A stretch of DNA of 33,673 bases from an uncultured Chlorobiaceae bacterium (GTDB lineage: Bacteria > Bacteroidota > Chlorobiia > Chlorobiales > Chlorobiaceae). The stretch spans positions 1 to 33,673 of the forward strand of contig CAIVSG010000056.1 of NCBI GenBank assembly GCA_903908555.1, in the 5' to 3' direction. Shown here piece after piece: positions 15,850-33,673 of this stretch (its first letter is position 1; each line of letters opens with the position of its first letter). A model generated the notes under the pieces. That model worked only from the letters and a program-made list of their open reading frames with translations, was not told the DNA's origin and did not search any database. A program made the position numbers and the translations under genes.

Positions 15850-16959
15850 TTGCGCATAGCCTTCGATTCTCAAACCTTTTGTAACCAATCCTACGGTGGT
15901 ATTTCACGCTACTTTGTTCGATTGGTGGAACAACTTATTTCGCGGAATCAAAACGTTGGGATTTTTGCGCCTCTTCATCGGAATCACTATTTGAAGGAGT
16001 TGCCAACCAGTGTAGTACATGGTTATGGGTTGAATAGTTATCTACCAAAGAGTAGTCGATTGATCTTGCCACTGAATCAGTTGGTGTCCAAAATTGCAAT
16101 TAAGTTATGGACCCCTGATGTAGTACATGAAACCTATTATTCAAGATTAAATTCTTCCCCAAAGAGATGCCCTACGGTGATTACAGTTTATGATATGATC
16201 CATGAGCTGTTTAATGATAAGTTCTCTCCCCGTGACCGAACCTCACAATTGAAACGCATTGCTATTGAACGAGCTGATCATGTTATCTGTATCTCTGAGA
16301 GTACTCGAAAGGATTTAATACGCCTTTTTTATACGGATGAAAAAAAAGTCACGGTTGTCCATCTTGGGTTTGAAAAGTTTTCAGTTGATAAGCAGAGTGG
16401 GGAATCTCCTGCTACTAAAAGTCCCTATCTGCTTTATGTTGGTGATCGTGGTATATATAAAAATTTTAATAATTTTTTGCGTGCAGTTGCATTATCAAAA
16501 AGGCTGCAAAAAGATTTTGATATTCTCACATTTGGCGGTGGTAGGCTCACTCGATTGGAAGTGACTCTTCTTTCGGAGTTAGGCTTTAAGCCAGAGCAAG
16601 TTAAGCAACTTGGTGGTGATGATAAACTTCTTAGTCAGCTTTATGGAGGCGCAGCGGCTTTTGTTTATCCCTCTTTGTATGAAGGCTTTGGACTTCCTCC
16701 CCTAGAGGCGATGGCTCACAACTGTCCCGTTATTAGCAGCAAAACAAGTTCGATGCCAGAAGTTATTGGAGATGCAGCCGAATTTTTTAACCCTGCAGCA
16801 ATTGACGATATCGCAGACGCTATTGAACGGGTAGTTTATGTACCCAGCAGAAGCAGTGAACTTGTAATGCTCGGGCAAAAGCGTCTTAATAAATTTTCGT
16901 GGGGGCGTTGCGCTGAAGAGACTCTTGCTATTTATGGTAAATTGTCGAATAGTAAATGA
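15850..16959 (+). CDS. glycosyltransferase family 4 (GT-B fold), intact copy
   Basis: 369 residues with a TTG start. MRIAFDSQTF with GGISRYF corresponds exactly to the GTG-started paralogue at 19056, and no in-frame ATG lies nearby. Family marks: YGGISRYFVRL, VHETYYS, TVITVYDMIHELF, RADHVICISESTRKDL, LYVGDRG and the C-terminal donor-site motif EGFGLPPLEAMA (E278 and E286). It retains the nucleotide-sugar to build the repeat unit; the sugar is not predictable. Its stop overlaps the next gene by 4 bp. The second half of the gene is nearly identical in DNA to the broken copy at 19056-20167 while the first half is clearly diverged, which suggests gene conversion. Confidence 0.88.
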   Translation: MRIAFDSQTFCNQSYGGISRYFVRLVEQLISRNQNVGIFAPLHRNHYLKELPTSVVHGYGLNSYLPKSSRLILPLNQLVSKIAIKLWTPDVVHETYYSRLNSSPKRCPTVITVYDMIHELFNDKFSPRDRTSQLKRIAIERADHVICISESTRKDLIRLFYTDEKKVTVVHLGFEKFSVDKQSGESPATKSPYLLYVGDRGIYKNFNNFLRAVALSKRLQKDFDILTFGGGRLTRLEVTLLSELGFKPEQVKQLGGDDKLLSQLYGGAAAFVYPSLYEGFGLPPLEAMAHNCPVISSKTSSMPEVIGDAAEFFNPAAIDDIADAIERVVYVPSRSSELVMLGQKRLNKFSWGRCAEETLAIYGKLSNSK

Positions 16960-17924
16960 ATAACACCGCTTTGATTTGCGGGATAAGCGGGCAGGACGGC
17001 TCATGGCTTGCCCAGTTATTGCTTAAGAAAGGGTACGAAGTGTGGGGCACATCTCGTGATGCCCAAGGTAATGGTTTCACTAATCTCGTTCGATTGAGAA
17101 TTTGTGATCGAGTAAAATTGCTCTCAATGGTTCCAGAAGACTTTCGAAGTGTCTTTATGGCAATCAAGAAGAGCAAGCCCTCTGAAGTTTATTTTTTAGC
17201 AGGTCAGTCATCGGTCGGACTCTCTTTCGAGCAACCTGCTGAGACAATGCAAAGTATTTCTTTAGGTACACTGAATATTCTTGAAGCTTGCAGAATGGTA
17301 GACTTCCCAGTAAAACTTTACCATGCTGGTTCCAGTGAATGTTTTGGTGATACAGGTGGAATGGCCGCTAATGAAAAAACGCATTTTCATCCTCGTAGTC
17401 CCTATGCTGTTGCAAAAGCCTCAGCATTTTGGCTTGTAGATAACTATCGTGAGGCTTATGGTTTGTTTACCTGTAGTGGAATACTTTTCAATCATGAATC
17501 ACCATTACGCCCTGAACGATTTGTAACTCAGAAAATTATTAGTACCGTCCGCCGCATTGCCAATGGCTCTAACGAAAAGCTACAACTTGGCAGACTTGAT
17601 ATCGCTCGTGACTGGGGATGGGCTCCAGAGTATGTGGAAGCAATGTGGTTGATGTTGCAGCAGGACATCCCTGATGATTATGTTATTGCCACAGGCCAAA
17701 CTAATACGCTTGAATCATTTGTTTCGGCTGCATTTGCATCATATAATCTTGACTGGCGAGAGTATGTCGAACAAAATCCTGAATATTTTCGCCCAACAGA
17801 TTTATTGATAAGTCGGGCTGATACTGGGAAGGCAAAAGCCAAACTTGGTTGGCATGCCTGTTTGGGGCTTAATGAAGTTATTGCAGGGATGATTTGTGAG
17901 GATCTTCGCGGAAGTGCGCTTTAG
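16956..17924 (+). CDS. GDP-mannose 4,6-dehydratase-like SDR
   Basis: 322 residues; coupled by an ATGA overlap to the glycosyltransferase. The GMD-type nucleotide motif ICGISGQDGSWLAQLL, the catalytic region AGSSECFGD (S126-S127-E128) with SPYAVAK (Y150, K154), and GILFNHESPLRPERFVTQKI place it in the GMD/RMD branch. It is shorter and more divergent than classical GMD (about 345-370 residues). A true gmd begins at 33343, so this one may act on another GDP-sugar. GDP-heptose is an attractive candidate because the operon at 25610-29114 makes it and GMD-like enzymes make GDP-6-deoxy-heptose in other bacteria. That assignment is inference. Confidence 0.82.
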   Translation: MNNTALICGISGQDGSWLAQLLLKKGYEVWGTSRDAQGNGFTNLVRLRICDRVKLLSMVPEDFRSVFMAIKKSKPSEVYFLAGQSSVGLSFEQPAETMQSISLGTLNILEACRMVDFPVKLYHAGSSECFGDTGGMAANEKTHFHPRSPYAVAKASAFWLVDNYREAYGLFTCSGILFNHESPLRPERFVTQKIISTVRRIANGSNEKLQLGRLDIARDWGWAPEYVEAMWLMLQQDIPDDYVIATGQTNTLESFVSAAFASYNLDWREYVEQNPEYFRPTDLLISRADTGKAKAKLGWHACLGLNEVIAGMICEDLRGSAL

Positions 17925-19055: not shown

Positions 19056-20167
19056 GTGCGTATAGCCTTCGATTATCAAGCCTTTTGCATTCAAACTTAC
19101 GGTGGTATTTTACGTTACTTTGTCCGATTGGTAGAACAACTAATTGCACAGGAACAGGAGGTTCGCGTTTTTGCGCCATTTCATTGGAATCACTATTTAA
19201 AAGAATTACCATCCGGAATAGTAAATGGATATGGATTGAAACGTTATCCTCCAAAGAGTAGTCGATTGATGTTGCCACTAAATCAGTTTGTTTCAGAAAT
19301 TGCAATGAAGCAATGGAATCCTCATGTAGAGCATGAAACATATTATTCAAAAGAAGGTTCGGTTCCAAAGGGGATCCCAACTGTGATTACAGTCTATGAT
19401 ATGATCCATGAACTTTTTGCTGCTAAATTTTCTCCATGTGACCAAACCTCACAGATGAAACGCATTGCTATTGATCGGGCTGATCATGTGATCTGTATCT
19501 CTGAGAGTACACGAGAAGATTTGATTCGTCATTTTGCGACAGATGATAAAATAGTATCTGTGGTCCATCTCGGATTTGAGGATTTCTCGTTTGTAAAACA
19601 GAACTGTGTGCAATCTCTTACAACTAAAAGACCCTATCTGCTTTATGTTGGTGGTCGAGAAGGGTACAAAATTTTAATAATTTTGTGCGTGCCATTGCAA
19701 TATCCAAAATGCTAAAAAAAGATTTTGATATTCTCACATTTTGCGGTGGTAGGCTCACTCGATTGGAAGTGACTCTTCTTTCGGAGTTAGGCTTTAAGCC
19801 AGAGCAAGTTAAGCAACTTGGTGGTGATGATAAACTTCTTAGTCAGCTTTATGGAGGCGCAGCAGCTTTTTTATATCCCTCTTTGTATGAAGGCTTCGGA
19901 CTTCCCCCATTAGAGGCGATGGCTCACAACTGTCCCATTATTAGTAGCAAAACGAGCTCTATGCCTGAAGTTATTGGAGATGCTGCTGAATTCTTTAACC
20001 CTGCAGCAATTGAGGATATCGCAGCCGCTATCGAACGGGTGGTTTACTCCTCAAGTAGAACCCATGAACTCATAAAACTTGGTCAAGAACGACTCAATCA
20101 CTTTTCGTGGGGTCGTTGCGCCGATCAAACTCTTGCTATTTATCACCAAATATGTAATCGTGTATAA
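19056..20167 (+). pseudogene. second copy of the GT4 glycosyltransferase, one-base frameshift
   Basis: The GTG at 19056 opens MRIAFDYQAF with YGGILRYFVRL, paralogous to the gene at 15850. The frame is lost at the A-run 19668-19671: the paralogue has TATAAAAATTTT where this copy has TACAAAATTTT, one A fewer. Restoring the base gives YKNFNNFVRAIAISKML and joins the frame that carries EGFGLPPLEAMA and ends at 20167. The repaired protein would have 370 residues against 369 in the intact copy. The first 219 codons alone lack the donor-binding domain. Slippage-corrected expression through the short A-run is conceivable but not shown. Confidence 0.88.
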
Positions 20168-20426: not shown

Positions 20427-21695
20427 ATGTATTTGATAAAGAAGCATTCACCTTTTTTGTTTATGCAGTTGTGGTGGGTATTTTGGCTTGCTGCTGCAAA
20501 TATTGGAGCAACGGGACTTGTTACACCTTCAATTACAACAAACTTATTAGCAGTACTTCTTAGTCTAACAACCATTTGCGGATATGTTTTAATGCACTAC
20601 TTTCCAAGGGAATATAAATTGATACGATATGGGGGTGATGATAATTCATTTTTAAATAAGTTACATAAAATAAATAAGTTCATATTTAATGCTATTCTAA
20701 TTGTAGATGGATTTTATTGTTATAAAGCCATAAAAATATTTATTGATGAAGGTATAATCGGCTATCGTATAAAGACATTTTCAACATATAACACACCTTC
20801 AATTCTTTACGGAAGTGCTCAAGTAGAGTTAACTCATTTGATAATAATTGAGCCATTATCGTTATTTTTTATGATCTCATCAATAACCCTTTATTTATAC
20901 AAAGCAGATATTAAGTATTTGTATTGCGCATTTTTGATAGCTTTTATCCAATCAATAATTGTGATGGGAAGATTTAATTTATATACATTAGTAGTTTTAA
21001 CCATTTATGGGGGGTATGTATACGGTAAAAAATTCAAAATAAAATTGCTATTCCTTTCATTATTAATTATATCAATAATACTTGTAGGTGTATCTACATT
21101 AAGAGATAATTATGAAGGCAAGAACGTTCTTGTCGAAATTGCAAGTAGCTCTGTATATGATTATCATGTCATAGGTTTCTTGCTTTTTGATAAAGCAATA
21201 AATGATAAAAATTCGTTTATTAATAACGAAATTACATATGGTCGGGCTGTTTTTGGCGGAATAGATCGTGCGGTTACTTTATTAATAAGTAGATTTGATA
21301 AATCTTTTGAACTTGGCTTAAAAAATACAGGCGCTGATAGACAAGATAGAATAGATGTCAGTAATCAACGAAATGAGATTCGTGAATATAACGCACATTA
21401 TACCATTATGTATCTTCTTTACTCTGACGGGGGTGTAATCGGCATTATGTTTTTTGGAATGTTTTATGGTATTATATCAGCATTTATTTTAAAAAAATAT
21501 TATTATAGCAATTCTCCAAAATACTTTTTAGCTATTATGTTGTTGTTTAATGCCTCATTTCTTGCTATTTTTACGTCACCATTGGAAAGTGTCGGTTATT
21601 GGGGATGTGTATTTATTACTTATCTTACTAGTAAAAAGATTAAAATGTTCAGGAGTCAGCAACCACATGATAATTTATTCGCTCAAGTCTCTTAA
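20427..21695 (+). CDS. Wzy-type O-antigen/capsule repeat-unit polymerase
   Basis: 422 residues with about ten membrane helices and almost no sequence motifs, as is normal for Wzy. The clues are the hydropathy pattern, a large loop between helices in the second half (about 225-320, with STLRDNYEGKN and ADRQDRIDVSNQRNE), and AHYTIMYLLYSDGGVIGIMF just after it, which resembles the conserved late segment of oligosaccharide repeat-unit polymerases. With the Wzx-type flippase and the Wzz-type protein it would complete a Wzy-dependent pathway. The DNA is strikingly AT-rich, so the gene is probably a horizontal acquisition. Confidence 0.75.
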   Translation: MYLIKKHSPFLFMQLWWVFWLAAANIGATGLVTPSITTNLLAVLLSLTTICGYVLMHYFPREYKLIRYGGDDNSFLNKLHKINKFIFNAILIVDGFYCYKAIKIFIDEGIIGYRIKTFSTYNTPSILYGSAQVELTHLIIIEPLSLFFMISSITLYLYKADIKYLYCAFLIAFIQSIIVMGRFNLYTLVVLTIYGGYVYGKKFKIKLLFLSLLIISIILVGVSTLRDNYEGKNVLVEIASSSVYDYHVIGFLLFDKAINDKNSFINNEITYGRAVFGGIDRAVTLLISRFDKSFELGLKNTGADRQDRIDVSNQRNEIREYNAHYTIMYLLYSDGGVIGIMFFGMFYGIISAFILKKYYYSNSPKYFLAIMLLFNASFLAIFTSPLESVGYWGCVFITYLTSKKIKMFRSQQPHDNLFAQVS

Positions 21696-21802
21696 TTACA
21701 TTTTCCTTGTAATTTTTTTAAGAAATAATAATTCATATTTATATGATTTTAATTATTAAATATTTTTGCGATTATTCCGCTATAATTTTTTAAGATGAAT
21801 CC

Positions 21803-22525
21803 ATGTCTATATGTATTATTACTGTAGTCAAAAATAATCCGATTGATATGTTGGAGACATATTATTCGATTAAAAGTAATTTGCATAACATTAAGTTATG
21901 GATAATTGTTGATGGAAATAACGGGACATCCATAACTTCAATAATGGAAGAAGAAATAAGGTTTTATGATAATGTTAAAATAATAAAAGGGTTAGATCGA
22001 GGTTTGTATAATGCAATGAATATTGGAGCCTCTTATGCTGGTGATGAGGATTACCTTTGGTGGATTAATGCTGGTGATAAATTATATGAAATCCCTGAAA
22101 TTAATTTTAATTATGATTTATTGTTTTATAAAATTATAATTAAAGAAACTTCTAAAATATCAAAATTAGATGTTAAAAATTTGGATAACGGTAAAAATTA
22201 TTTTCCTGTATCGATATTTTGGCATCAGGGGTTTATAGTTAAGAAAAAAATATTTGCTAAATATTTATATGATGAAAGCCTTAAGCTTGCCGCTGATTTA
22301 TATTTAATGAGTTTATGTCAAAAGTATGAACAATATTTTGTTTCGGATCAGATTATATGTACATATTCTATTGGCGGTATATCTAATAAACTACCTATAT
22401 TGTGGTTAAAAGAATATATAAAGGTTGCCAATAAACTTCAAATTAATATATTTATGATGCCACTAAAGTGTTATTTACTAATTATTAAACTCATCATAAA
22501 AGGAGTTATTTTAAGTTTTAAATGA
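21803..22525 (+). CDS. family 2 glycosyltransferase (WcaE/PssI-like)
   Basis: 240 residues. MSICIITVVKNNP is a typical GT2 first strand, LDRGLYNAMNIG matches the D-x-G-x-Y-x-A-M-N motif of WcaE-like enzymes, and WWINAGDKL gives the NAGD form of the metal-binding site (about 89-92). FWHQGFIVKK marks the acceptor-side region. Hydrophobic C-terminal residues (CYLLIIKLIIKGVILSF) may sit on the membrane. The gene is the most AT-rich of the window and probably entered together with the polymerase. Confidence 0.8.
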   Translation: MSICIITVVKNNPIDMLETYYSIKSNLHNIKLWIIVDGNNGTSITSIMEEEIRFYDNVKIIKGLDRGLYNAMNIGASYAGDEDYLWWINAGDKLYEIPEINFNYDLLFYKIIIKETSKISKLDVKNLDNGKNYFPVSIFWHQGFIVKKKIFAKYLYDESLKLAADLYLMSLCQKYEQYFVSDQIICTYSIGGISNKLPILWLKEYIKVANKLQINIFMMPLKCYLLIIKLIIKGVILSFK

Positions 22526-23772: not shown

Positions 23773-24762
23773 ATGAATACCAAGCTTGATGAGTCTCAGA
23801 TATCTATTGTATCCGGTGGGGCAGGTTTTATCGGTAACCAAATTATTGGGAGATTGATATCCGAAGGTAGAGGTGTTGCCGTTGTCGATAATTTTTCGAG
23901 AGGACTTCGAGCACACCTTGATGTGTTTGCGCATAATTCTCTTCTTCATATAATTGAAGCTGACCTTTCCATTCGAAGAGAATGCATGAACGCGTTTGAT
24001 GTTGCTGCAACAAAAGGAAGAGTAGTTGAAGTATGGCATCTCGCTGCAAACTCCGACATTCCTGCTGGAGTCGCAGATCCGGATGTGGATTTGAAGGATA
24101 CTTTTTTAACTACTTTCGAGCTATTAAGGTGTATGAAGATTTTTGGTATAAAGTCTTTTCACTTTGCGTCTAGCTCCGCGGTTTATGGCGACTTGGGTTC
24201 AACACCTTTACATGAAGGTATAGTACCTTTGTTGCCGATTTCTAACTATGGGGCTATGAAACTTGCTTCGGAGGCGCAGGCAAGTGCTGCCGCTGAGAGT
24301 TTCCTTGAACGTGTAAACATATTTCGGTTTCCTAATGTTGTTGGAATTCCTGCCACACATGGTGTAATTTTTGACTTTATTTTAAAGCTTTTATCCAATC
24401 AGGATGTTCTTCATGTTCTAGGAGATGGTTCTCAACAGAAAGCCTACATGCATGTTTCTGATTTAGTAGATGCTATGTTCACTGTATCATCAAGCAAGAT
24501 TAATGAGAAAATCGAGGTAATAAATATTGGCCCTGTCGATGAAGGAGTGAGCGTACGTTGGATTGCCGAACAGGTCGTTGCGCGCGTAAGTCCATATGCA
24601 AAAATCAAATATGGAAATGGGAATAAAGGTTGGGTTGGGGATGTACCGCGATTTAACTATTCAACTGATCGTTTGCAGTCTTATGGATGGTCACCAAAGT
24701 TAAACTCCTCTGAGGCGATTATTCGAGCAATTGATGAAATTGCCATCCAAAAAGGATTTTAA
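23773..24762 (+). CDS. NAD-dependent sugar-nucleotide epimerase/dehydratase (SDR)
   Basis: 329 residues. Extended SDR fold: VSGGAGFIGNQIIG (GGAGFIG 15-21), VVDNFSRG, HLAANSDI, FASSSAVYGD and the catalytic SNYGAMK (Y159, K163), then FRFPNVVGIPATHGVIFDF. It resembles the UDP-glucose 4-epimerase or dTDP-glucose dehydratase-like group, but the exact reaction cannot be chosen. It is next to glycosyltransferases and just upstream of the GDP-heptose genes, so it probably modifies one of the donors. Confidence 0.8.
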   Translation: MNTKLDESQISIVSGGAGFIGNQIIGRLISEGRGVAVVDNFSRGLRAHLDVFAHNSLLHIIEADLSIRRECMNAFDVAATKGRVVEVWHLAANSDIPAGVADPDVDLKDTFLTTFELLRCMKIFGIKSFHFASSSAVYGDLGSTPLHEGIVPLLPISNYGAMKLASEAQASAAAESFLERVNIFRFPNVVGIPATHGVIFDFILKLLSNQDVLHVLGDGSQQKAYMHVSDLVDAMFTVSSSKINEKIEVINIGPVDEGVSVRWIAEQVVARVSPYAKIKYGNGNKGWVGDVPRFNYSTDRLQSYGWSPKLNSSEAIIRAIDEIAIQKGF

Positions 24763-24790: not shown

Positions 24791-25600
24791 ATGCAAGAAG
24801 TAAAACCAAAAGTCTCAATAATCATACCTTCCTTCAATGAATCTGAAAGAATTTTAGAACAGAGTTTTGCAAGTTTGGTATCGCAGTCTTTTGGAGACTT
24901 CGAATGCTTGGTTATTGATGAGAGCACTGATTTATTTATTGCAAAATCGTGCAAAAGGCTTTGTGAACAAGATAAGCGATTTTCTTATATCCATCCAGAA
25001 AAAAGGATAGGTCTTGCTGCCAGTCTGAATCTCGGTATTTCCAAAGCCAAAGGTGATTTGATAGCCCGTTTTGATGCTGATGATTTATGTATGCCTAACC
25101 GCTTGGAACTTCAAGTATCCTTTATGGATTCTTATCCTGATATCGATATCCTTGGTGGAGGCTTGGAAATCATGAACGAAGAAGGTAAGACGCTTGCTTT
25201 TCGACAATATCCTTCCGATCATTCTCGTATAGAACGGCGCCTTCTGACAACGACTGCTATTGCTCATCCAACGGTGATGATGCGCAAAAATATTATTGAT
25301 AGGTTTGGTGGTTATGATTCAAGTTTCCGATTTTCGGAAGATCTCGATTTATGGTTGAGGTTAATTAATCGTGGTGTTAAATTTGCCAATTTAAGCGAGG
25401 TATTGGTGCGTTATCGTCAACAGACGACACACCGCAATCCATTACATTGGCGCTTCAATCTGAGAGCAAGGACGAAAAATATGAGCATGCGCCACTTGCC
25501 TCTACGTGTTTTTGGTATTTGTGCTATTGCAGTATGGGGAAGTTTACCCGGATCGATACAGAAAAGGATATATAGTTACATGCTACTCCGTAATTATTGA
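24791..25600 (+). CDS. family 2 glycosyltransferase
   Basis: 269 residues. VSIIIPSFNESERILEQS, GLAASLNLGISKAKGDLIAR and FDADD (D95, D97, D98) give the GT2 nucleotide-sugar site, and FRFSEDLDLWLRL the catalytic-base region. AHPTVMMRK lies between them. The VIDEST motif replaces the more usual VDDGST. It ends 9 bp before the heptose fusion gene, so the two are probably cotranscribed; it could be the heptosyltransferase of the repeat unit, an inference from position only. Confidence 0.85.
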   Translation: MQEVKPKVSIIIPSFNESERILEQSFASLVSQSFGDFECLVIDESTDLFIAKSCKRLCEQDKRFSYIHPEKRIGLAASLNLGISKAKGDLIARFDADDLCMPNRLELQVSFMDSYPDIDILGGGLEIMNEEGKTLAFRQYPSDHSRIERRLLTTTAIAHPTVMMRKNIIDRFGGYDSSFRFSEDLDLWLRLINRGVKFANLSEVLVRYRQQTTHRNPLHWRFNLRARTKNMSMRHLPLRVFGICAIAVWGSLPGSIQKRIYSYMLLRNY

Positions 25601-25609
25601 CCAGTCTTA

Positions 25610-27538
25610 ATGCTCGAACTTATGAGTTCCAATAATATATCTAGCCAGGTTGCTATCCTTGCGGGTGGCATGGGAACCCGTTTGAAGGGGCGTACCGGTA
25701 GTCTTCCAAAGCCTATGGCACCGATTATGGGTCGACCTGTTCTTGAGCATCAAATTGAACTTTGCAAACGTCATGGTTTTACTCGTATTGCATTGTTGGT
25801 TCATTATGAGTATGACCGCATTTGTGCTTATTTCGAGGATGGCAAGCGATGGGGGGTTGAGCTAACATATCATGTAGAGCAGGTTGCTCGAGGAACAGCA
25901 GGTGCTTTACTTGATGCATTTGACGGTATGGATGATCGATTCATTGTGCTCTATGGTGACACCTATGCAGATGTTGATCTTTGTACAGTATGGGAGAGCC
26001 ATATTGCAAGTGGGGCTTGCGCAACGCTGTTTTTGCATCCTAATGATCACCCGCATGACTCTGATTTGGTAGAGATTGATGATAATTTCCAAGTGGTGGC
26101 TATGCATCCATACCCTCATCCTCAGAATGAGCTTTACCCAAATCTTGTTAATGCAGCTCTTTATGTTTTGGAGCGAGATATTCTAATAAAAGTGGTACCT
26201 GTAACTGGAAAGTCCGATCTTGCCAAGCACATGTTTCCTGCTATGCTTGTTGCAAAGATGCCTATTCATGCATATAGAACTCCCGAATATATTAAAGATA
26301 TGGGTACTCCAGACCGTATCGATAAGGTTGAAAGAGATATTGTGGTTGGCTTACCTGAACGTCTATCTTCTCGTCATGCAAGGCAGGCTGTATTTATGGA
26401 TCGCGATGGCACTTTAAATGTTGAGGTAAATCATCTTCATCTGCCGTCCCAGTTAGTTTTACTGCCAGGCGTAGCGGAGGCGATATATGAACTCAATGGA
26501 GCTGGTATTTTGGCTGTTGGAGTGACTAATCAACCGGTTGTCGCTCGTGGCGATGTAACATGGGCAGAGCTACATCGTATTCATGCCAGGCTTGATGAAT
26601 TACTTGGTCAAGGCAAAGCATATCTTGATCGTCTCTATGTCTGTCCTCACCATCCGGAATGTGGGTTTACGGGCGAGGTTTCTGAACTCAAAATTGATTG
26701 TGATTGCCGTAAGCCGCGAACTGGGATGTTTAATCGCGCAGTAGTTGAGTTAAACATTGATCGGGGACAGTCATGGATGGTAGGTGATACTACTTCTGAT
26801 ATTCGTGCGGGTAAGAATGCAGGTTTGCGAACCATTCTTGTTCGCACCGGGTATGCAGGACTTGATGGAAAATATTCTGATGAGCCAGACTATGTCATGC
26901 CTGATTTTCCAGCTGCAGTAGGTTGGATTCTTCATGGTCATGCGTCTATTGCTCGTCAGTTATTGTCTATAACGGCATCAATAGTAACAGCGAAACAACG
27001 GATGATACTTGTAGCTGGCCCTGCCCGTGCAGGGAAGAGCTCTACAGCGCGTGTATTGGCTGAACAATTAAGAGCGGCTGGATGGGTAGTACATATGTTT
27101 TCGCTTGATGGCTGGCTGCGGCCAATTGATCAGCGTCTTGAAGGTGCTGGTCTCCTCCATCGTTATGACATGCAAGCAATTGTGTCCATGTTAACTCCTA
27201 TTCTTAAAGGCGGACGACACTGGATACAGTTGCCATTTTATGAACGTATGTCTCGCAGTATCCAGTCTGGGCATCAGCATTCGATTGGTCCTGATGATCT
27301 TATCATTCTTGAAGGCGTTCCAGCGCTGTTGGAGCCTGCATTGATTGGTTCTGCAGATGTGCGTGTTTTTGTTGATGTAGATGATGAAGAGCGGTTACGC
27401 CGCCTGAAAGCTGATTATGCTTGGCGTGGTGAGCCATGGGAGAGTGTTGAGATTCGATTGCATTCTCGTGATCATGATGAATTACCCGTTGTTCGTGCAA
27501 GTGCTAAGAATGCGACTCACCGTATTTCAACTTATTGA
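25610..27538 (+). CDS. three-domain fusion: HddC-like nucleotidyltransferase, GmhB-like phosphatase, P-loop kinase
   Basis: 642 residues. Domain 1 (about 12-245): sugar-1-phosphate nucleotidyltransferase with AILAGGMGTRLKG, LPKPMAPI, GDTYAD (116-121) and YIKDMGTPDRI, like D-glycero-D-manno-heptose-1-phosphate guanylyltransferase HddC. Domain 2 (about 258-440): HAD phosphatase with FMDRDGTLN (D264, D266), VTNQP, CRKPRTGMF (K368) and VGDTTSDI (D393), and the GmhB-type zinc ligands CPHHPEC and CDC. Domain 3 (about 462-642): P-loop kinase with GPARAGKSS (470-478), FSLDGWLRP and ILEGVPAL, like uridine kinase-type enzymes. It is followed after 6 bp by hddA, then gmhA. Domains 1 and 2 fit two steps of GDP-heptose synthesis. 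The job of domain 3 is unknown, since the adjacent HddA already supplies the pathway kinase. The ATG at 25622 is an alternative start. Confidence 0.88.
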   Translation: MLELMSSNNISSQVAILAGGMGTRLKGRTGSLPKPMAPIMGRPVLEHQIELCKRHGFTRIALLVHYEYDRICAYFEDGKRWGVELTYHVEQVARGTAGALLDAFDGMDDRFIVLYGDTYADVDLCTVWESHIASGACATLFLHPNDHPHDSDLVEIDDNFQVVAMHPYPHPQNELYPNLVNAALYVLERDILIKVVPVTGKSDLAKHMFPAMLVAKMPIHAYRTPEYIKDMGTPDRIDKVERDIVVGLPERLSSRHARQAVFMDRDGTLNVEVNHLHLPSQLVLLPGVAEAIYELNGAGILAVGVTNQPVVARGDVTWAELHRIHARLDELLGQGKAYLDRLYVCPHHPECGFTGEVSELKIDCDCRKPRTGMFNRAVVELNIDRGQSWMVGDTTSDIRAGKNAGLRTILVRTGYAGLDGKYSDEPDYVMPDFPAAVGWILHGHASIARQLLSITASIVTAKQRMILVAGPARAGKSSTARVLAEQLRAAGWVVHMFSLDGWLRPIDQRLEGAGLLHRYDMQAIVSMLTPILKGGRHWIQLPFYERMSRSIQSGHQHSIGPDDLIILEGVPALLEPALIGSADVRVFVDVDDEERLRRLKADYAWRGEPWESVEIRLHSRDHDELPVVRASAKNATHRISTY

Positions 27539-27544
27539 CCAATT

Positions 27545-28531
27545 ATGATTATTAGTAAAACCCCATTACGAATGAGCTTTGTAGGAGGCGGTAGTGATCT
27601 TCCAGCATTTTATAGGGAAGATAGCGGTGCAGTTTTGTCTACAACGATTGATAAGTATATGTACATTGCCCTGAATCGCAAGTTTGACGGGCGAATCCGC
27701 ATTAACTATTCACGGACTGAAGAGGTGGATTGTCCTGATCAAGTTGAACATCCCCTGGTTCGTGAGGCGCTATTTCTCACTGGTATTACAGGTGGCATTG
27801 AAATCGCATCTCTAGCCGATATTCCTTCCATGGGTTCGGGTCTTGGCTCGTCCAGCACATACACAGTTGGTATACTCAATGGTCTTTATGCATACAATAA
27901 TCAGTTTGTTTCTAAAGAAACCTTGGCGCGCCAGGCATGCGATATCGAAATTAATCGCTGCGGTGAACCAATTGGCAAACAGGATCAATACGCTGCTGCG
28001 TATGGTGGTCTTAACCTTATTCGATTTCACCCTAACGAATCGGTTTCTGTCGATCCAGTAATTTGTAAACCTGAACTTCTTAAAACCTTGGAAGATTCGA
28101 CATTAGTTTTTTATACAGGTCGTACACGTAGTGCGTCCGAGGTGCTTTCTCAGCAGTCGAAGTCCTTACTTTCTACAAATAAAAAGTTACTCATGCGCCG
28201 TATGGTTCAGTTAGCTTTTGATCTTAAGGCTGAATTGGAAGCTGGATCACTTGACAATTTTGGATCAATTCTTGACGAAAATTGGCGTTTAAAGGCACAG
28301 TTATCTCAAGGGATCACTGACTCGCAAATTGATGCTTGGTATGCGACTGGGTTAGCACATGGCGCAAAAGGCGGCAAGTTATTGGGAGCAGGAAATGGGG
28401 GGTTTATGATGTTTTTTGCACCTCCTCATTTACATCAAGATATAACGAATGCCTTGCCGGATATGGAGCTTGTGAAGTTTCAATTTGAACGAAACGGAAC
28501 GCAAATTGTATTTTATCAACCTACTGATTAG
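27545..28531 (+). CDS. hddA: D-glycero-D-manno-heptose 7-phosphate kinase (GHMP family)
   Basis: 328 residues. GHMP kinase marks: TPLRMSFVGGGSDLPAF at the N-terminus, the ATP loop MGSGLGSSSTYTVG (about 96-109), EPIGKQDQYAAAYGG, and the C-terminal GAKGGKLLGAGNGGFMMFF. The order and wording match HddA and related heptose/fucose kinases. It would phosphorylate C1 of heptose 7-phosphate to give the 1,7-bisphosphate used by the GmhB-like domain of the preceding gene. It lies 6 bp after the fusion gene and 7 bp before gmhA. Confidence 0.88.
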   Translation: MIISKTPLRMSFVGGGSDLPAFYREDSGAVLSTTIDKYMYIALNRKFDGRIRINYSRTEEVDCPDQVEHPLVREALFLTGITGGIEIASLADIPSMGSGLGSSSTYTVGILNGLYAYNNQFVSKETLARQACDIEINRCGEPIGKQDQYAAAYGGLNLIRFHPNESVSVDPVICKPELLKTLEDSTLVFYTGRTRSASEVLSQQSKSLLSTNKKLLMRRMVQLAFDLKAELEAGSLDNFGSILDENWRLKAQLSQGITDSQIDAWYATGLAHGAKGGKLLGAGNGGFMMFFAPPHLHQDITNALPDMELVKFQFERNGTQIVFYQPTD

Positions 28532-28538
28532 AAAAATA

Positions 28539-29114
28539 ATGGGCACAATACCGTTTACTGTCAATAACTATTTTTCTGCATTTGCTTTATTAGCTGAAAA
28601 GCTTAATATCTCTGAATTTCAGTTTGGGATTGATCTTATTCGCGCAAAATTCGAATCTGGCAAAAAAATCATAACATGTGGTAACGGTGGTAGCGCCTAT
28701 ACGGCCTCACACTACATAACTGATTGGAATAAGATGGTCAATCTTACGAACAACAAAAAGTTTTACGGTATTTCACTCTGTGATAACATCGGCCTTATTA
28801 CTGCTTTCGGAAATGATATTTCTTACGATGATATATTTTTAGGGCAGCTTAAACCTATTCTTGATGAAGGCGATCTTTTGGTGGCAATCAGTGGGAGTGG
28901 CAATTCAGCAAATGTAATAAAAGCGGTTGAATATGCTAATCTTATAAAAGCTGATACGTTGGCTGTCGTAGGATATGATGGAGGAAATTTGAAGGCAGTG
29001 TCTAAATACTGTGTTTTGGTACCATCTTTTGATATGCAACTATGTGAAGATTGTCATTTGATGTTTGGGCATATGGTGATGAAGGCACTATGCGGATCAT
29101 CAATTTCAGGCTAG
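28539..29114 (+). CDS. gmhA: sedoheptulose 7-phosphate isomerase (SIS domain)
   Basis: 191 residues from the ATG at 28539; the frame stays open 18 codons further up, but those codons overlap the end of hddA and lack GmhA similarity. SIS-domain marks: TCGNGGSAYTASHYITDW (C47 onward), ITAFGNDISYDDIF, LVAISGSGNSANVIKAVEYA and CEDCHLMFGHMVM. By family it isomerises sedoheptulose 7-phosphate to D-glycero-D-manno-heptose 7-phosphate, the first step of heptose-nucleotide synthesis. With the two genes before it, it completes the GDP-D-glycero-D-manno-heptose route. Confidence 0.9.
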   Translation: MGTIPFTVNNYFSAFALLAEKLNISEFQFGIDLIRAKFESGKKIITCGNGGSAYTASHYITDWNKMVNLTNNKKFYGISLCDNIGLITAFGNDISYDDIFLGQLKPILDEGDLLVAISGSGNSANVIKAVEYANLIKADTLAVVGYDGGNLKAVSKYCVLVPSFDMQLCEDCHLMFGHMVMKALCGSSISG

Positions 29115-29580: not shown

Positions 29581-29627
29581 ATAGTGTGACTTGCCCTTTT
29601 TTGTATTTAAACCAGAATCACAGCATA

Positions 29628-30932
29628 ATGAATAGAAAAATATCAGTTTATTATCTATTTCTGACTGTTTTTCTGGGGGTGTGTATAACAGTACTCTTTG
29701 GGTGGTCTGTCAGACATGTATTTTTGGGAAATTATAGGCTTGGCACCTATGGTGAGGCGGTGATCTCTATTGCTGCGTTCCCTCAATTGGCAAAAGATGT
29801 GGTGCTTGATATCTCTGGATTTGGCTCCGATCAGGTGATTCAAGATCACTTTGCTTCGCTGGACGGGTTAAACAAATCGGGAAAGTTGCAGGCAGGTACT
29901 CGTGAAGACAAGGGATATCTGCTTTTTTCATCATATGATACTATTAAAAAGCAATCTACAGTCAAATTGCTTCGTATTCGGGATCAGCACATCCTGAAAG
30001 AGTGGACGCCAGATATTGATGCTATATTGGAGAGGGTAAAGAGCAAATCCCGAAAATCCAATGCACGTATGCTCCATCCTCTTTTAGTAGAGAATGGCGG
30101 TTTAGTTTTTGGTATGGACTCACTCATTAAAATAGGACCTGCATCCTCTGTTGAGTGGATTGCTGATTGCATGTCGCATCACTCACTGGAGAAGGATGCA
30201 GAGGGCAATATATGGGTATGTTCAAGGATGAAACCCTCCTCTTATGAAGGAGTTTTGAGTCATCTTGATGATGCAATTGCCAAAGTATCACCTTCTGGAA
30301 AAGTGCTCTTTAAAAAGTCGGTCACAAAAATTCTATATGAGAACGGGTATCGGGGTCTGTTGGCTGGTGGCTTTCGTAGACGATATGAAGAGGATCCAAT
30401 TCACCTCAACGAAGTTCAGCCTGCTCTGAGCGATACAAAATACTGGAAAAAGGGCGATCTCATGTTGAGCATGCGACATCGCAGCACGATCGCTCTTTAT
30501 CGGCCAAGTACTGACAAGATTATCTGGCTCAAGACAGGTCCCTGGATGAATCAGCATGATGTGGAGTTTGTAAGTGATCATGAAATTTCGGTATTTGGCA
30601 ACAATGTGATAAGTGATCGTAAAGGTGAGGTATTAATGGATGGTCATAATCAAGTTTACCTCTACGACTTTGCTAAAAACACCCTATCGACACCATTCAA
30701 TCAGGCAATGAGTTTTTTTGCAGTTCGCACAAAAACGGAGGGTCGTTCAAAAATTCTTTCAAATGGTGAGGTGTTTATAGAAGAGAGTAACAATGGTCGC
30801 CTCCTTCGGCTTACCCCCCAAAGTGCAAAATGGGAGTTTGTCCAGAGAGTTGACAAGAATCATTTGTCGCTGCTGAGTTGGTGTCGTTACATGACTGAAG
30901 AAGAAGTTCGGCGTATTTTTCCCAACATATAA
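29628..30932 (+). CDS. arylsulfotransferase (ASST)-like beta-propeller protein
   Basis: 434 residues from the ATG at 29628; the frame opens earlier at a TTG without support. One N-terminal membrane anchor (about 5-27) precedes a periplasmic domain with beta-propeller-like repeats. EGNIWVCSRM, HLDDAIAKVSPSGKVLFKKS, DPIHLNEVQPA, KKGDLMLSMRHRSTIALYRP and the QHDVEFV motif resemble the ASST/Arylsulfotransfer_2 family, which moves sulfate from aryl sulfate donors. Which histidine acts cannot be confirmed by eye. It lies next to a PAPS-type sulfotransferase and APS kinase. It may sulfate, or only bind, the exported polymer. Confidence 0.72.
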   Translation: MNRKISVYYLFLTVFLGVCITVLFGWSVRHVFLGNYRLGTYGEAVISIAAFPQLAKDVVLDISGFGSDQVIQDHFASLDGLNKSGKLQAGTREDKGYLLFSSYDTIKKQSTVKLLRIRDQHILKEWTPDIDAILERVKSKSRKSNARMLHPLLVENGGLVFGMDSLIKIGPASSVEWIADCMSHHSLEKDAEGNIWVCSRMKPSSYEGVLSHLDDAIAKVSPSGKVLFKKSVTKILYENGYRGLLAGGFRRRYEEDPIHLNEVQPALSDTKYWKKGDLMLSMRHRSTIALYRPSTDKIIWLKTGPWMNQHDVEFVSDHEISVFGNNVISDRKGEVLMDGHNQVYLYDFAKNTLSTPFNQAMSFFAVRTKTEGRSKILSNGEVFIEESNNGRLLRLTPQSAKWEFVQRVDKNHLSLLSWCRYMTEEEVRRIFPNI

Positions 30933-30951
30933 ACTCCGACCACCATAGCCG

Positions 30952-31188
30952 ATGAAAAAATTTGTTTTCTGTATACTTTTTATGCTCTTCGTTTTTCCAT
31001 TCACCGCTTACGCCTATATTGGGCCGGGACTTGGCACAGGCATTATTGGAGTTGTGCTTGGTATTTTAACGGCTTTTTTTTTATCCATTACCGCTATTAT
31101 CTGGTACCCTCTCAAGCGACTTTACAAGCAGATATTTAAAGGAAAAGGAAAGACAACAGGTGGGTCTGAAACTATAGACTCTTTATAG
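30952..31188 (+). CDS. small membrane protein with YIGPG motif
   Basis: 78 residues. A hydrophobic N-terminus ending AYA before YIGPGLGTG looks like a signal peptide or first membrane helix. A second hydrophobic helix (IIGVVLGILTAFFLSITAII) is followed by WYPLKRLYKQIFKGKGK, a basic cytoplasmic tail. Small YIGPG proteins of this kind occur beside ASST-like or sulfotransferase genes in polysaccharide loci; their function is unknown. It begins 19 bp after the ASST-like gene and ends 6 bp before the sulfotransferase gene. Confidence 0.75.
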   Translation: MKKFVFCILFMLFVFPFTAYAYIGPGLGTGIIGVVLGILTAFFLSITAIIWYPLKRLYKQIFKGKGKTTGGSETIDSL

Positions 31189-31194
31189 GCGATT

Positions 31195-32652
31195 GTGAGT
31201 GGTATTTTTGGTGTTTCTTTACTGGCGATTATAACGGTTAAATATTTTCGCCATCTTCCATTTCGGAGGGCGGTTGAGGATCTGTTGGGTGTGGCTCAGA
31301 AGTCTTTAGGAGTTTTGCATTCTAAGCGGATCTCAGATCACTGGAAAGAGCGAGTACTTTTGCGTTATGCTCAGCTCATTATGGGCTCAACACTCTCTCT
31401 CACTTTGCTGTTGTCAGGCTTGTTTGTGTTGATGGTTCTTGGTGCATTTCTGCTCGATACGATCTTTGCTCCCAAGCCAAGCACCATGGACACCCTTGTT
31501 CGCCCAATAGGCTGGCTTTGGATGACTGTTGTTGCATCTGCTTATTACTATGCAGTTAATCGATATTCGGTTGTGTCAAAAGTGAGTGATTACTCATTAG
31601 GAGATAGAGTACTTCATCGACTTGCTTTAGGGTCACCATTGATCGGGCGGATATCGTTCGATATAGATCAGACTGTTGCAAAACTTAGGGTAGGCAGGAA
31701 AGAGGAATCTCCAGTATTTATCAGCGGTTTGGCGCGGGCAGGTACAACCATCTTAATGAGGACATTCTATGAGACAGGGGAGTTTCGCTCGTTAACCTAT
31801 CGAGATATGCCATTTGTTTTGATGCCAAACCTTTGGAAAGTTCTTTCAACGGCATTTCAAAAGAATCAGATTGCGAAGGAGCGGGCTCATGGTGATGGTA
31901 TTGAGGTAAATTTTGATAGCCCCGAGGCATTTGAAGAGGTGTTTTGGAAGACTTTTTTGGCTGATGACTATCTTTTTAAGGATCATCTCTCTCCTCATGC
32001 TCCAAACACGGAGGTTATTGACCAATTTCGGCGCTTTGTCAGTCATGTCGTATTAAGTGCAGATCACCCAGAACAGCAGAGGTATCTCTCAAAAAACAAT
32101 AATAATGTTCTTCGTCTTGGCTCAATCCGTCGTGCATTTCCCAATGCACTGATTATCGTTCCTTTTCGAGATCCGGTGCAGCAGGCCATCTCTCTTTTAA
32201 AGCAGCATACTCAGTTTTGTGTAATGCATAAAAGAGACAAATTCAGCCGCGATTACATGGAGTGGTTGGGGCATCATGAATTTGGCGGCACTCATCGACC
32301 CTTTCAATTTGGAGAACGTTGGCGTGTAACTCCAATACAGAATGACCCAGAGAACATTAATTACTGGTTAGCTCTCTGGATCAATACCTATAACTATCTT
32401 CTCGAAACTGCCTCAAAAGACACGCTCTTCCTTTGTTTTGAGGAGTTGTGTCGTGAGCCGCAAAAAGTCATGAGCTCTCTGTTTGCAATGGCCAATATAT
32501 CTGTAGATAATATCTCGATTGAAGGTAAGTTCAGGGCGCCCTCGGTCATGCAGGTTGAGGCTGTTAATGAAGCATTGCAACAGCAAGCGTTACAAATATA
32601 TCGTGATCTGTCGGTAAGAGCCAGAGAGCTTTTTGCCGTCTCTTCAGTTTAG
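31195..32652 (+). CDS. membrane-anchored sulfotransferase (PAPS type)
   Basis: 485 residues, GTG start 6 bp after the small membrane-protein gene. The N-terminal 115 residues contain two or three hydrophobic segments (about 57-90 and 98-115). The C-terminal domain has the 5'-phosphosulfate loop FISGLARAGTTILMR (about 175-189) and the 3'-phosphate site IVPFRDPVQQAISLL (about 321-335), with WLALWINTYNYLL further on. These are the two PAPS-binding elements of the Sulfotransfer_3 type family. It likely adds sulfate to a sugar, lipid or protein at the membrane. The APS kinase gene 42 bp downstream would supply PAPS. Confidence 0.82.
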   Translation: MSGIFGVSLLAIITVKYFRHLPFRRAVEDLLGVAQKSLGVLHSKRISDHWKERVLLRYAQLIMGSTLSLTLLLSGLFVLMVLGAFLLDTIFAPKPSTMDTLVRPIGWLWMTVVASAYYYAVNRYSVVSKVSDYSLGDRVLHRLALGSPLIGRISFDIDQTVAKLRVGRKEESPVFISGLARAGTTILMRTFYETGEFRSLTYRDMPFVLMPNLWKVLSTAFQKNQIAKERAHGDGIEVNFDSPEAFEEVFWKTFLADDYLFKDHLSPHAPNTEVIDQFRRFVSHVVLSADHPEQQRYLSKNNNNVLRLGSIRRAFPNALIIVPFRDPVQQAISLLKQHTQFCVMHKRDKFSRDYMEWLGHHEFGGTHRPFQFGERWRVTPIQNDPENINYWLALWINTYNYLLETASKDTLFLCFEELCREPQKVMSSLFAMANISVDNISIEGKFRAPSVMQVEAVNEALQQQALQIYRDLSVRARELFAVSSV

Positions 32653-32694
32653 GGAAAGCTTCATTTTGCAAAATGAATGTCGTGGAGTGTTTAT

Positions 32695-33327
32695 ATGACT
32701 GAAAAACGGGAAATTGTATGGCATCAGGGACAGATGACGGCCGCAGAACGTCAAAAGTTACTTGGCATCACGCATCAACCATTCGTCATCTGGTTTACTG
32801 GTTTGTCAGGTTCTGGCAAGTCAACATTAGCGTTTGCCATCGAACGTCGCCTTATAAGCAAGGGTGTCTTGTGTACTGTATTAGATGGAGATAATGTTCG
32901 TCATGGATTGAACCGTGACCTTGGCTTTTCACCTCTTGACCGAACTGAAAATATCCGCCGGGTTGCGGAAGTTGCTCGCTTAATGATTGATTCTGGCTTG
33001 ATCGTCATAACATCGTTTATTTCCCCGTATCGCGAGGACCGTGTGATGGCTAAAGCAATCATTGGAGAAGATAAGTTTGTTGAGGTTTACCTGAATGCTA
33101 GTCTTGAAGCCTGCGAAAAGCGCGATACAAAGGGGTTTTATCGGAAGGCTCGGGCTGGGGAATTGTCCGGTTTTACAGGTATATCATCTCCTTATGAGGC
33201 TCCAGAATATCCAGAGCTGTCCATTGACACAAGTACTCTTACCCTTGATGTTTGTGTTGGCTCCTTACTTCAGGTCGTAATAAAGCACTCTCGTTTAGGT
33301 GATGCGGCTACTAACCGTGTCATATAA
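32695..33327 (+). CDS. cysC: adenylylsulfate (APS) kinase
   Basis: 210 residues from the ATG at 32695, preferred because GGAG lies about 7 bp upstream; an in-frame ATG at 32677 is possible. Family signatures: FTGLSGSGKSTLA (Walker A 36-43), VLDGDNVRHGLNRDLGFS, ISPYREDR (with the serine that is phosphorylated in this family) and KGFYRKARAGELSGFTGI followed by SPYEAPEYPEL. It makes PAPS from APS and ATP. No ATP sulfurylase or reductase gene is next to it; instead it follows a sulfotransferase, which points to sulfation rather than sulfate assimilation. Confidence 0.94.
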   Translation: MTEKREIVWHQGQMTAAERQKLLGITHQPFVIWFTGLSGSGKSTLAFAIERRLISKGVLCTVLDGDNVRHGLNRDLGFSPLDRTENIRRVAEVARLMIDSGLIVITSFISPYREDRVMAKAIIGEDKFVEVYLNASLEACEKRDTKGFYRKARAGELSGFTGISSPYEAPEYPELSIDTSTLTLDVCVGSLLQVVIKHSRLGDAATNRVI

Positions 33328-33342
33328 CAAAAAACAATCTTT

Positions 33343-33673
33343 ATGAAAAAAGCATTAATCACCGGTGTTACAGGCCAGGACGGGGCCTATCTTGCCGAAT
33401 TCTTATTATCAAAAGGATATGAGGTTCACGGTATTAAGCGCCGCTCATCACTCTTTAACACCGATCGGGTCGACCATCTCTATCAGGATCCTCATGTTAA
33501 GCACCTGCAATTTGTGCTTCACTTTGGTGATATGACCGATTCATCAAATCTGACGCGTATTATCCAGCAGGTACAGCCGGATGAAATCTACAATCTTGGG
33601 GCACAGAGTCATGTGGCAGTCTCTTTTGAAGAACCGGAATATACCGCCAATGTGGATGGACTTGGTGCACTGC
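33343..33673 (+). CDS. gmd: GDP-mannose 4,6-dehydratase, N-terminal part (cut by window edge)
   Basis: The frame from the ATG at 33343 reads [51 protein letters not shown] and [20 protein letters not shown], which is a classical GMD start. It would convert GDP-mannose to GDP-4-keto-6-deoxy-mannose for fucose, rhamnose or related sugars. It runs past the end of the window, so the length is unknown. It starts 15 bp after cysC, suggesting that the unit continues. Confidence 0.93.

What the first reader, a model, noticed from the sequence alone, without database searches (positions are those of the whole stretch)
25610..27538. HddC-GmhB fusion with an added P-loop kinase domain
One 642-residue protein joins a guanylyltransferase-like domain, a zinc-type GmhB-like phosphatase and a uridine-kinase-like P-loop domain with intact Walker A. 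The first two fit GDP-heptose synthesis. HddA is encoded next door, so the third domain is not needed for the known pathway and may act on another sugar or precursor, or regulate flux. I am not aware of a described enzyme with this trio.
Basis: partly seen in the sequence, partly recalled or inferred. Interest (0 to 1): 0.7.

Follow-up and report, generated by a model that had tools for sequence, protein, structure and literature searches.

The report
Three-part GDP-heptose enzyme with unassigned kinase
A green sulfur bacterium carries one protein that joins two known steps of making an activated seven-carbon sugar to a third, apparently working kinase whose job is unknown; the same three-part protein turns up in many unrelated bacteria, but the kinase part has been lost again and again.

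Summary
Window 25610-27538 (+) encodes 642 residues in three domains: a sugar-1-phosphate guanylyltransferase-like domain, a GmhB-type zinc HAD phosphatase, and a uridine-kinase/phosphoribulokinase-fold kinase with intact Walker A. HddA and GmhA genes follow it. The trio is not unique to this window. I found it in 43 of 80 related public loci across at least five phyla, and in Methylovirgula and Rhizobium plasmids, where it is annotated only 'HAD-IIIA family hydrolase'. Another 29 loci have the same cassette without the kinase domain, and 6 have a decayed copy. The kinase domain looks catalytically competent: Walker A, Asp500, Glu568-Gly569 and Arg598 are conserved, and Ka/Ks is 0.06-0.29. It reaches no NCBIfam family cut-off and lacks the uridine-binding His and DHPD motif of uridine kinase. 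Tree and neighbourhood data show repeated loss with the rest of the cassette unchanged, so the kinase is an accessory of GDP-heptose synthesis, not an essential step. My best guess is that it phosphorylates a heptose, heptulose or their phosphate to feed the same pathway; the substrate is untested. The cassette is probably a horizontally acquired island in a Chlorobium-type genome. I found no paper describing the trio in the library searched.

The parts
25610..26359 (+). Domain 1 (res ~1-250): HddC-like sugar-1-phosphate nucleotidyltransferase; GGxGTR motif (res 19-24), K34, GD117, family-specific HPNDHPxDSDL (143-153)
   Evidence: Pfam PF00483 E 1e-26; Foldseek to Yersinia HddC 5xhw TMt 0.87; invariant residues in 43 homologues
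26372..26920 (+). Domain 2 (res ~255-437): GmhB-type HAD phosphatase; DxDGT 264-268, T306-N307, K368, D393; zinc ligands C345/H347/C364/C366
   Evidence: NCBIfam PRK08942 E 4e-40; PDB E. coli GmhB 3l8e TMt 0.91, 36% id; residues conserved
26951..27535 (+). Domain 3 (res ~448-642): PRK/uridine-kinase-fold P-loop kinase; Walker A 470-477, D500-x-W502, R509, Y544, E568-G569, R598, R620, E624
   Evidence: Pfam PF00485 above cut-off; AlphaFold pLDDT 95.4; Foldseek best hit UCK2 E 3e-13; conservation
27545..28531 (+). HddA-like GHMP kinase (heptose-7-phosphate 1-kinase)
   Evidence: NCBIfam HddA model E 6e-49, below its cut-off; next to the fusion in most homologous loci
28485..29114 (+). GmhA-like SIS-domain sedoheptulose-7-phosphate isomerase (true start probably about 28539)
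   Evidence: NCBIfam gmhA E 1e-31, below its cut-off; Pfam SIS_2
23773..24762 (+). SDR nucleotide-sugar epimerase/dehydratase conserved with the cassette
   Evidence: Pfam Epimerase E 5e-37; present in 33/43 trio and 21/29 duo loci
24791..25600 (+). Family 2 glycosyltransferase, same place in Roseateles and Polynucleobacter loci
   Evidence: Pfam Glycos_transf_2; 53-61% identity in L045-L047, L049, L050

Best explanation
A fused GDP-heptose-forming enzyme with an accessory kinase. [quoted passage not shown] Shown here by sequence and predicted structure: domain 3 is a PRK/uridine-kinase-fold kinase with conserved catalytic residues, under purifying selection, always fused in the loci seen and repeatedly lost. 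Inferred and uncertain: it is an active ATP-dependent kinase acting on a heptose, a heptulose or one of their phosphates at a primary hydroxyl, feeding the same pathway under conditions that only some hosts meet (salvage or extra supply).
For: Domain assignments and structures. Catalytic set conserved across 46 trios sharing only about 30% pairwise identity in domain 3: D500 46/46, G569 46/46, R598, R509, R620 and E624 45/46 each. Ka/Ks of domain 3 is 0.06-0.29 in close pairs. HddA gene in 41/43 trio and 26/29 duo loci, GmhA 35/43 and 21/29, SDR 33/43 and 21/29, no significant difference, so the kinase is an add-on to an unchanged pathway. Tree: at least 7 changes of the trio label forced by well-supported branches; six decayed copies lie in different clades. 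The four-step pathway without a further kinase is established in C. jejuni (PMC10680097). Nucleoside-specific residues of uridine kinase are replaced and additional Arg/Lys are conserved (R509, R/K546, R549, R620), which fits an anionic or sugar acceptor better than a nucleoside.
Against: No substrate evidence. No partner gene separates trio from duo loci, so nothing points to a particular heptose. Domain 3 evolves faster than domains 1 and 2 (30% against 50% mean identity), which also fits a regulatory or relaxed role. A comparison of R509 with the Ru5P phosphate-binding Arg of phosphoribulokinase is not supported by the alignment, which has a gap there. Domain 1 and HddA score below the NCBIfam HddC and HddA cut-offs, so even the exact sugar is inferred.
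Confidence: 0.45

Rival explanations
1. Regulatory kinase/phosphatase pair: domain 3 re-phosphorylates the product of domain 2 (at O7), making a switchable cycle like PFK-2/FBPase-2, so that flux into GDP-heptose responds to ATP or other signals.
For: A kinase and a phosphatase sit on one chain, joined by a long helix with a confidently predicted arrangement. Domain 3 is dispensable. It evolves faster than domains 1-2.
Against: No sensor or regulatory domain; a futile cycle would waste ATP. No direct evidence. Decay of the active site in some lineages would unbalance such a switch, yet the rest of the cassette persists.
Confidence: 0.15
2. Nucleotide supply: domain 3 is a nucleoside or nucleotide kinase that helps provide GTP to domain 1.
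For: The closest solved structures are uridine-cytidine kinases; domain 1 uses an NTP.
Against: The Udk DHPD motif and base-contacting His are not conserved. Guanosine is not, to my knowledge, a substrate of this family. Duo forms need no such domain.
Confidence: 0.12
3. Domain 3 adds a phosphate to a finished or side-chain sugar (for example a phosphorylated heptose or other polyol unit of the polysaccharide), separate from GDP-heptose supply.
For: Presence varies between otherwise alike cassettes, as expected for a decoration step.
Against: A decoration enzyme need not be fused to HddC-GmhB. No partner gene was found enriched with the trio after many tests.
Confidence: 0.15
4. Domain 3 is a non-catalytic structural or nucleotide-sensing domain.
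For: Some full-length copies have lost the P-loop and persist (L061, L119).
Against: In the other copies, catalytic residues outside the motif used for classification (D500, R598, E568-G569) are nearly invariant despite about 30% identity.
Confidence: 0.13

Closest known systems
[quoted passage not shown]
   Same: The same four enzyme types in one cassette; domains 1 and 2 carry the last two steps
   Different: HddC and GmhB are fused, and a kinase with no place in the pathway is added; HddC and HddA scores are below NCBIfam cut-offs
Uridine-cytidine kinase / phosphoribulokinase family (Pfam PF00485), including solved UCK2, Thermus Udk, and 1rz3 (unknown function)
   Same: Fold, Walker A, catalytic Asp, E-G motif, lid Arg
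   Different: 21-25% identity to UCK/Udk and 19% to 1rz3; below every NCBIfam cut-off; DHPD and the base-binding His missing; own signature D-x-W-(x)n-R and R620/E624
FKP, L-fucokinase/GDP-fucose pyrophosphorylase of Bacteroides fragilis (PMC6468028 in the hit lists; paper not read, details from general knowledge)
   Same: A sugar kinase and a GDP-sugar pyrophosphorylase on one chain, serving salvage
   Different: FKP uses a GHMP kinase; here the kinase is P-loop and a HAD phosphatase lies between
HddC-GmhB two-domain proteins (29 of the loci, about 435 aa)
   Same: Domains 1-2 and the same neighbouring genes
   Different: No domain 3

Membership tests
GDP-heptose biosynthesis cassette (HddC/GmhB/HddA/GmhA) | All four enzyme types encoded together | tested here: met
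GDP-heptose biosynthesis cassette (HddC/GmhB/HddA/GmhA) | HddC, HddA and GmhA score above NCBIfam curated cut-offs | tested here: not met
   HddC 92 of 300 bits, HddA 167 of 600, gmhA 110 of 209; family-level relatives, equivalogy not shown
[quoted passage not shown]
   Needs enzyme assay
GmhB zinc HAD phosphatase | DxD, Lys, Asp catalytic residues and four zinc ligands | tested here: met
   D264/D266, K368, D393, C345/H347/C364/C366 conserved in at least 45 of 46
Uridine kinase (Udk) | Scores above the equivalog cut-off | tested here: not met
   PRK05480 49 of 180 bits, TIGR00235 43 of 220
Uridine kinase (Udk) | Nucleoside-binding DHPD and His | tested here: not met
   Replaced in the alignment with a bacterial Udk
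PRK/Udk superfamily (PF00485) | Pfam gathering score and fold with Walker A and catalytic Asp | tested here: met
   27-32 bits against cut-off 22; Foldseek
Phosphoribulokinase | Ru5P-phosphate ligands (Arg, Tyr, His) in place | tested here: inconclusive
   Tyr544 and basic residues are present but the Arg region does not align (ligands from PMC5241800)

The most novel reading that the evidence does not exclude
Domain 3 founds an undescribed kinase subfamily that acts on a seven-carbon sugar (free or phosphorylated), giving bacteria a second entry into GDP-heptose synthesis from salvaged or alternative heptoses, gained early in the HddC-GmhB family and lost many times.
Probability: 0.3. Interest if true: 0.65.

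Novelty: new variant of a known kind. Interest (0 to 1): 0.5.

Why it matters
A widespread surface-sugar enzyme is filed in databases as 'HAD-IIIA family hydrolase', which hides a nucleotidyltransferase and a likely working kinase of unknown substrate. Natural pairs with and without the kinase, some nearly identical elsewhere, make its role directly testable and could reveal a missing heptose salvage or control step.

Tried and rejected
(1) Chance or artefact: rejected, the trio recurs across phyla. (2) Unique to this genome: rejected. (3) Trio common in the window's own phylum: not seen in 393 other genomes of it (only 8 candidates per genome were scored). (4) Viral carriage: the viral-contig scan found none; partial matches in unannotated gut 'phage' records are likely bacterial contigs. 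(5) Kinase replaces HddA: rejected, HddA is near 41 of 43 trios. (6) Free-standing relative of domain 3: none among the genomes searched; the next best hits, 70 bits or less against 208, look like ordinary uridine kinases. L012's long frame was a uridine kinase with spurious upstream codons. (7) Gene partner separating trio from duo: none significant after many tests. (8) R509 equals the PRK Ru5P-binding Arg: dropped, the alignment has a gap there. (9) Literature searches for a named trio: none found; only open-licence PMC papers were searched.

Full report
What is there. The ORF at 25610-27538 (+) is complete and encodes 642 residues. Pfam, NCBIfam and PDB comparisons place a nucleotidyltransferase at about 13-245, a GmhB-type HAD phosphatase at 258-434 and a PRK/uridine-kinase-type P-loop domain at about 462-640. 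AlphaFold2 with 43 homologues gives pTM 0.92 and mean pLDDT 93.7; domain 3 alone gives 95.4. Structure searches return Yersinia HddC for domain 1 (TMt 0.87), E. coli GmhB for domain 2 (TMt 0.91) and uridine-cytidine kinase for domain 3 (E 3e-13, 24% identity).

Surroundings. The gene sits in a polysaccharide cluster (export protein, Wzz, flippase, glycosyltransferases, two GDP-mannose-dehydratase-like genes, sulfotransferases, APS kinase). It is followed at once by HddA-like and GmhA-like genes and preceded by a glycosyltransferase and an SDR epimerase. The genome encodes the FMO antenna protein, as do nearly all its order-mates, and the window's nuoN is 94% identical to that of a same-genus genome, so the host is a green sulfur bacterium of the Chlorobium type. 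None of the 24 same-genus genomes has the full fusion. The nearest homologue is in Roseateles (72% over domains 1-2, HddA 78%, GmhA 72%), with the same gene order, and third-position GC falls from 0.5-0.6 at the nuo genes to about 0.3. The cassette was therefore probably acquired horizontally (inference).

Relatives. Plasmid searches found the trio over 98-99% of its length in Methylovirgula (44% identity) and many Rhizobium plasmids (about 32%), annotated 'HAD-IIIA family hydrolase' and near SIS, GHMP and SDR genes. A scan of 84,980 species genomes with domain 1 gave 80 loci: 43 trios with an intact P-loop, 29 two-domain proteins of about 435 aa, 6 with a decayed third domain, 2 truncated. 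Trios occur in Pseudomonadota, Bacteroidota, Acidobacteriota, Myxococcota and Thermodesulfobacteriota. The scan keeps 80 of 119 confirmed hits and used two short patterns, so these are not unbiased frequencies. MAG names can be wrong; one 'Chitinophaga' MAG groups with betaproteobacteria.

Is domain 3 functional? Trios were classed by length and by the P-loop, so Walker A conservation is partly by selection. Other catalytic positions were not used: D500 46/46, E568 42/46, G569 46/46, R598 45/46, with R509, R620 and E624 at 45/46. Mean pairwise identity in domain 3 is only 30%, against 50% in domains 1-2. Ka/Ks in close pairs is 0.06-0.29 for domain 3 and 0.04-0.15 for domains 1-2. So it is under purifying selection, somewhat weaker than its neighbours.

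Is it required? Apparently not. Trio and duo loci have the same partners at similar rates: HddA 41/43 and 26/29, GmhA 35/43 and 21/29, SDR 33/43 and 21/29; Fisher p 0.39, 0.40, 0.78. On the domains 1-2 tree the trio label needs 14 changes, at least 7 forced by well-supported branches. Two closely related Sphingomonadales loci in the window's own clade show a P-loop-less copy (L061) and a truncated one (L051) beside intact HddA. I read this as repeated loss of a conditionally useful domain; the tree alone does not fix the direction.

What does it do? The C. jejuni pathway needs only GmhA, HddA, GmhB and HddC (PMC10680097), all accounted for here. Domain 3 is not a uridine kinase by score or by binding residues. 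Conserved extra basic residues suggest a sugar or anionic acceptor. Given its permanent fusion to heptose enzymes and the primary-alcohol chemistry of this kinase family (established knowledge), I commit to a kinase acting on a heptose, heptulose or their phosphate that feeds the same pathway, at 0.45. A control cycle, a decoration step, nucleotide supply and a structural role remain open.

Novelty. Domains and pathway are known; the trio and the kinase subfamily have no name in the libraries used and I found no paper on them. Hence new variant of a known kind. Interest 0.5: a clear, widespread, testable gap, lowered because the substrate is unknown and the pathway is ordinary.

Noticed in passing
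19056-20167: A glycosyltransferase gene split over two overlapping frames (19056-19715 and 19685-20167); it resembles the intact gene at 15850-16959, so it looks like a broken duplicate or a sequencing frameshift.
   Followed up: no
29586-33327: Arylsulfotransferase-like gene, Sulfotransfer_3 gene and APS kinase gene directly after GmhA: suggests a sulfated polysaccharide in a green sulfur bacterium.
   Followed up: no
33343-33672: Start of a second GDP-mannose 4,6-dehydratase-like gene cut by the contig end; another lies at 16956-17924. One could act on GDP-heptose.
   Followed up: no
L061:8004-9926 and L119:7977-9881: Full-length fusions whose kinase domain has lost the P-loop (pseudokinases), beside intact HddA.
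   Followed up: partly
20427-22525: Very low G+C genes (0.25-0.29) inside the cluster, likely from another source.
   Followed up: no
MT835828.1 13777-15273 (phages collection): An unannotated human-gut 'Bacteriophage sp.' record carries the first 76% of the trio; probably a bacterial contig.
   Followed up: no
L040 4209-15680: Rhizobium plasmids carry a compact SIS-GT-membrane-SDR-trio-GHMP-two-oxidoreductase cluster, the most divergent trio form, on many nodule-strain plasmids.
   Followed up: partly
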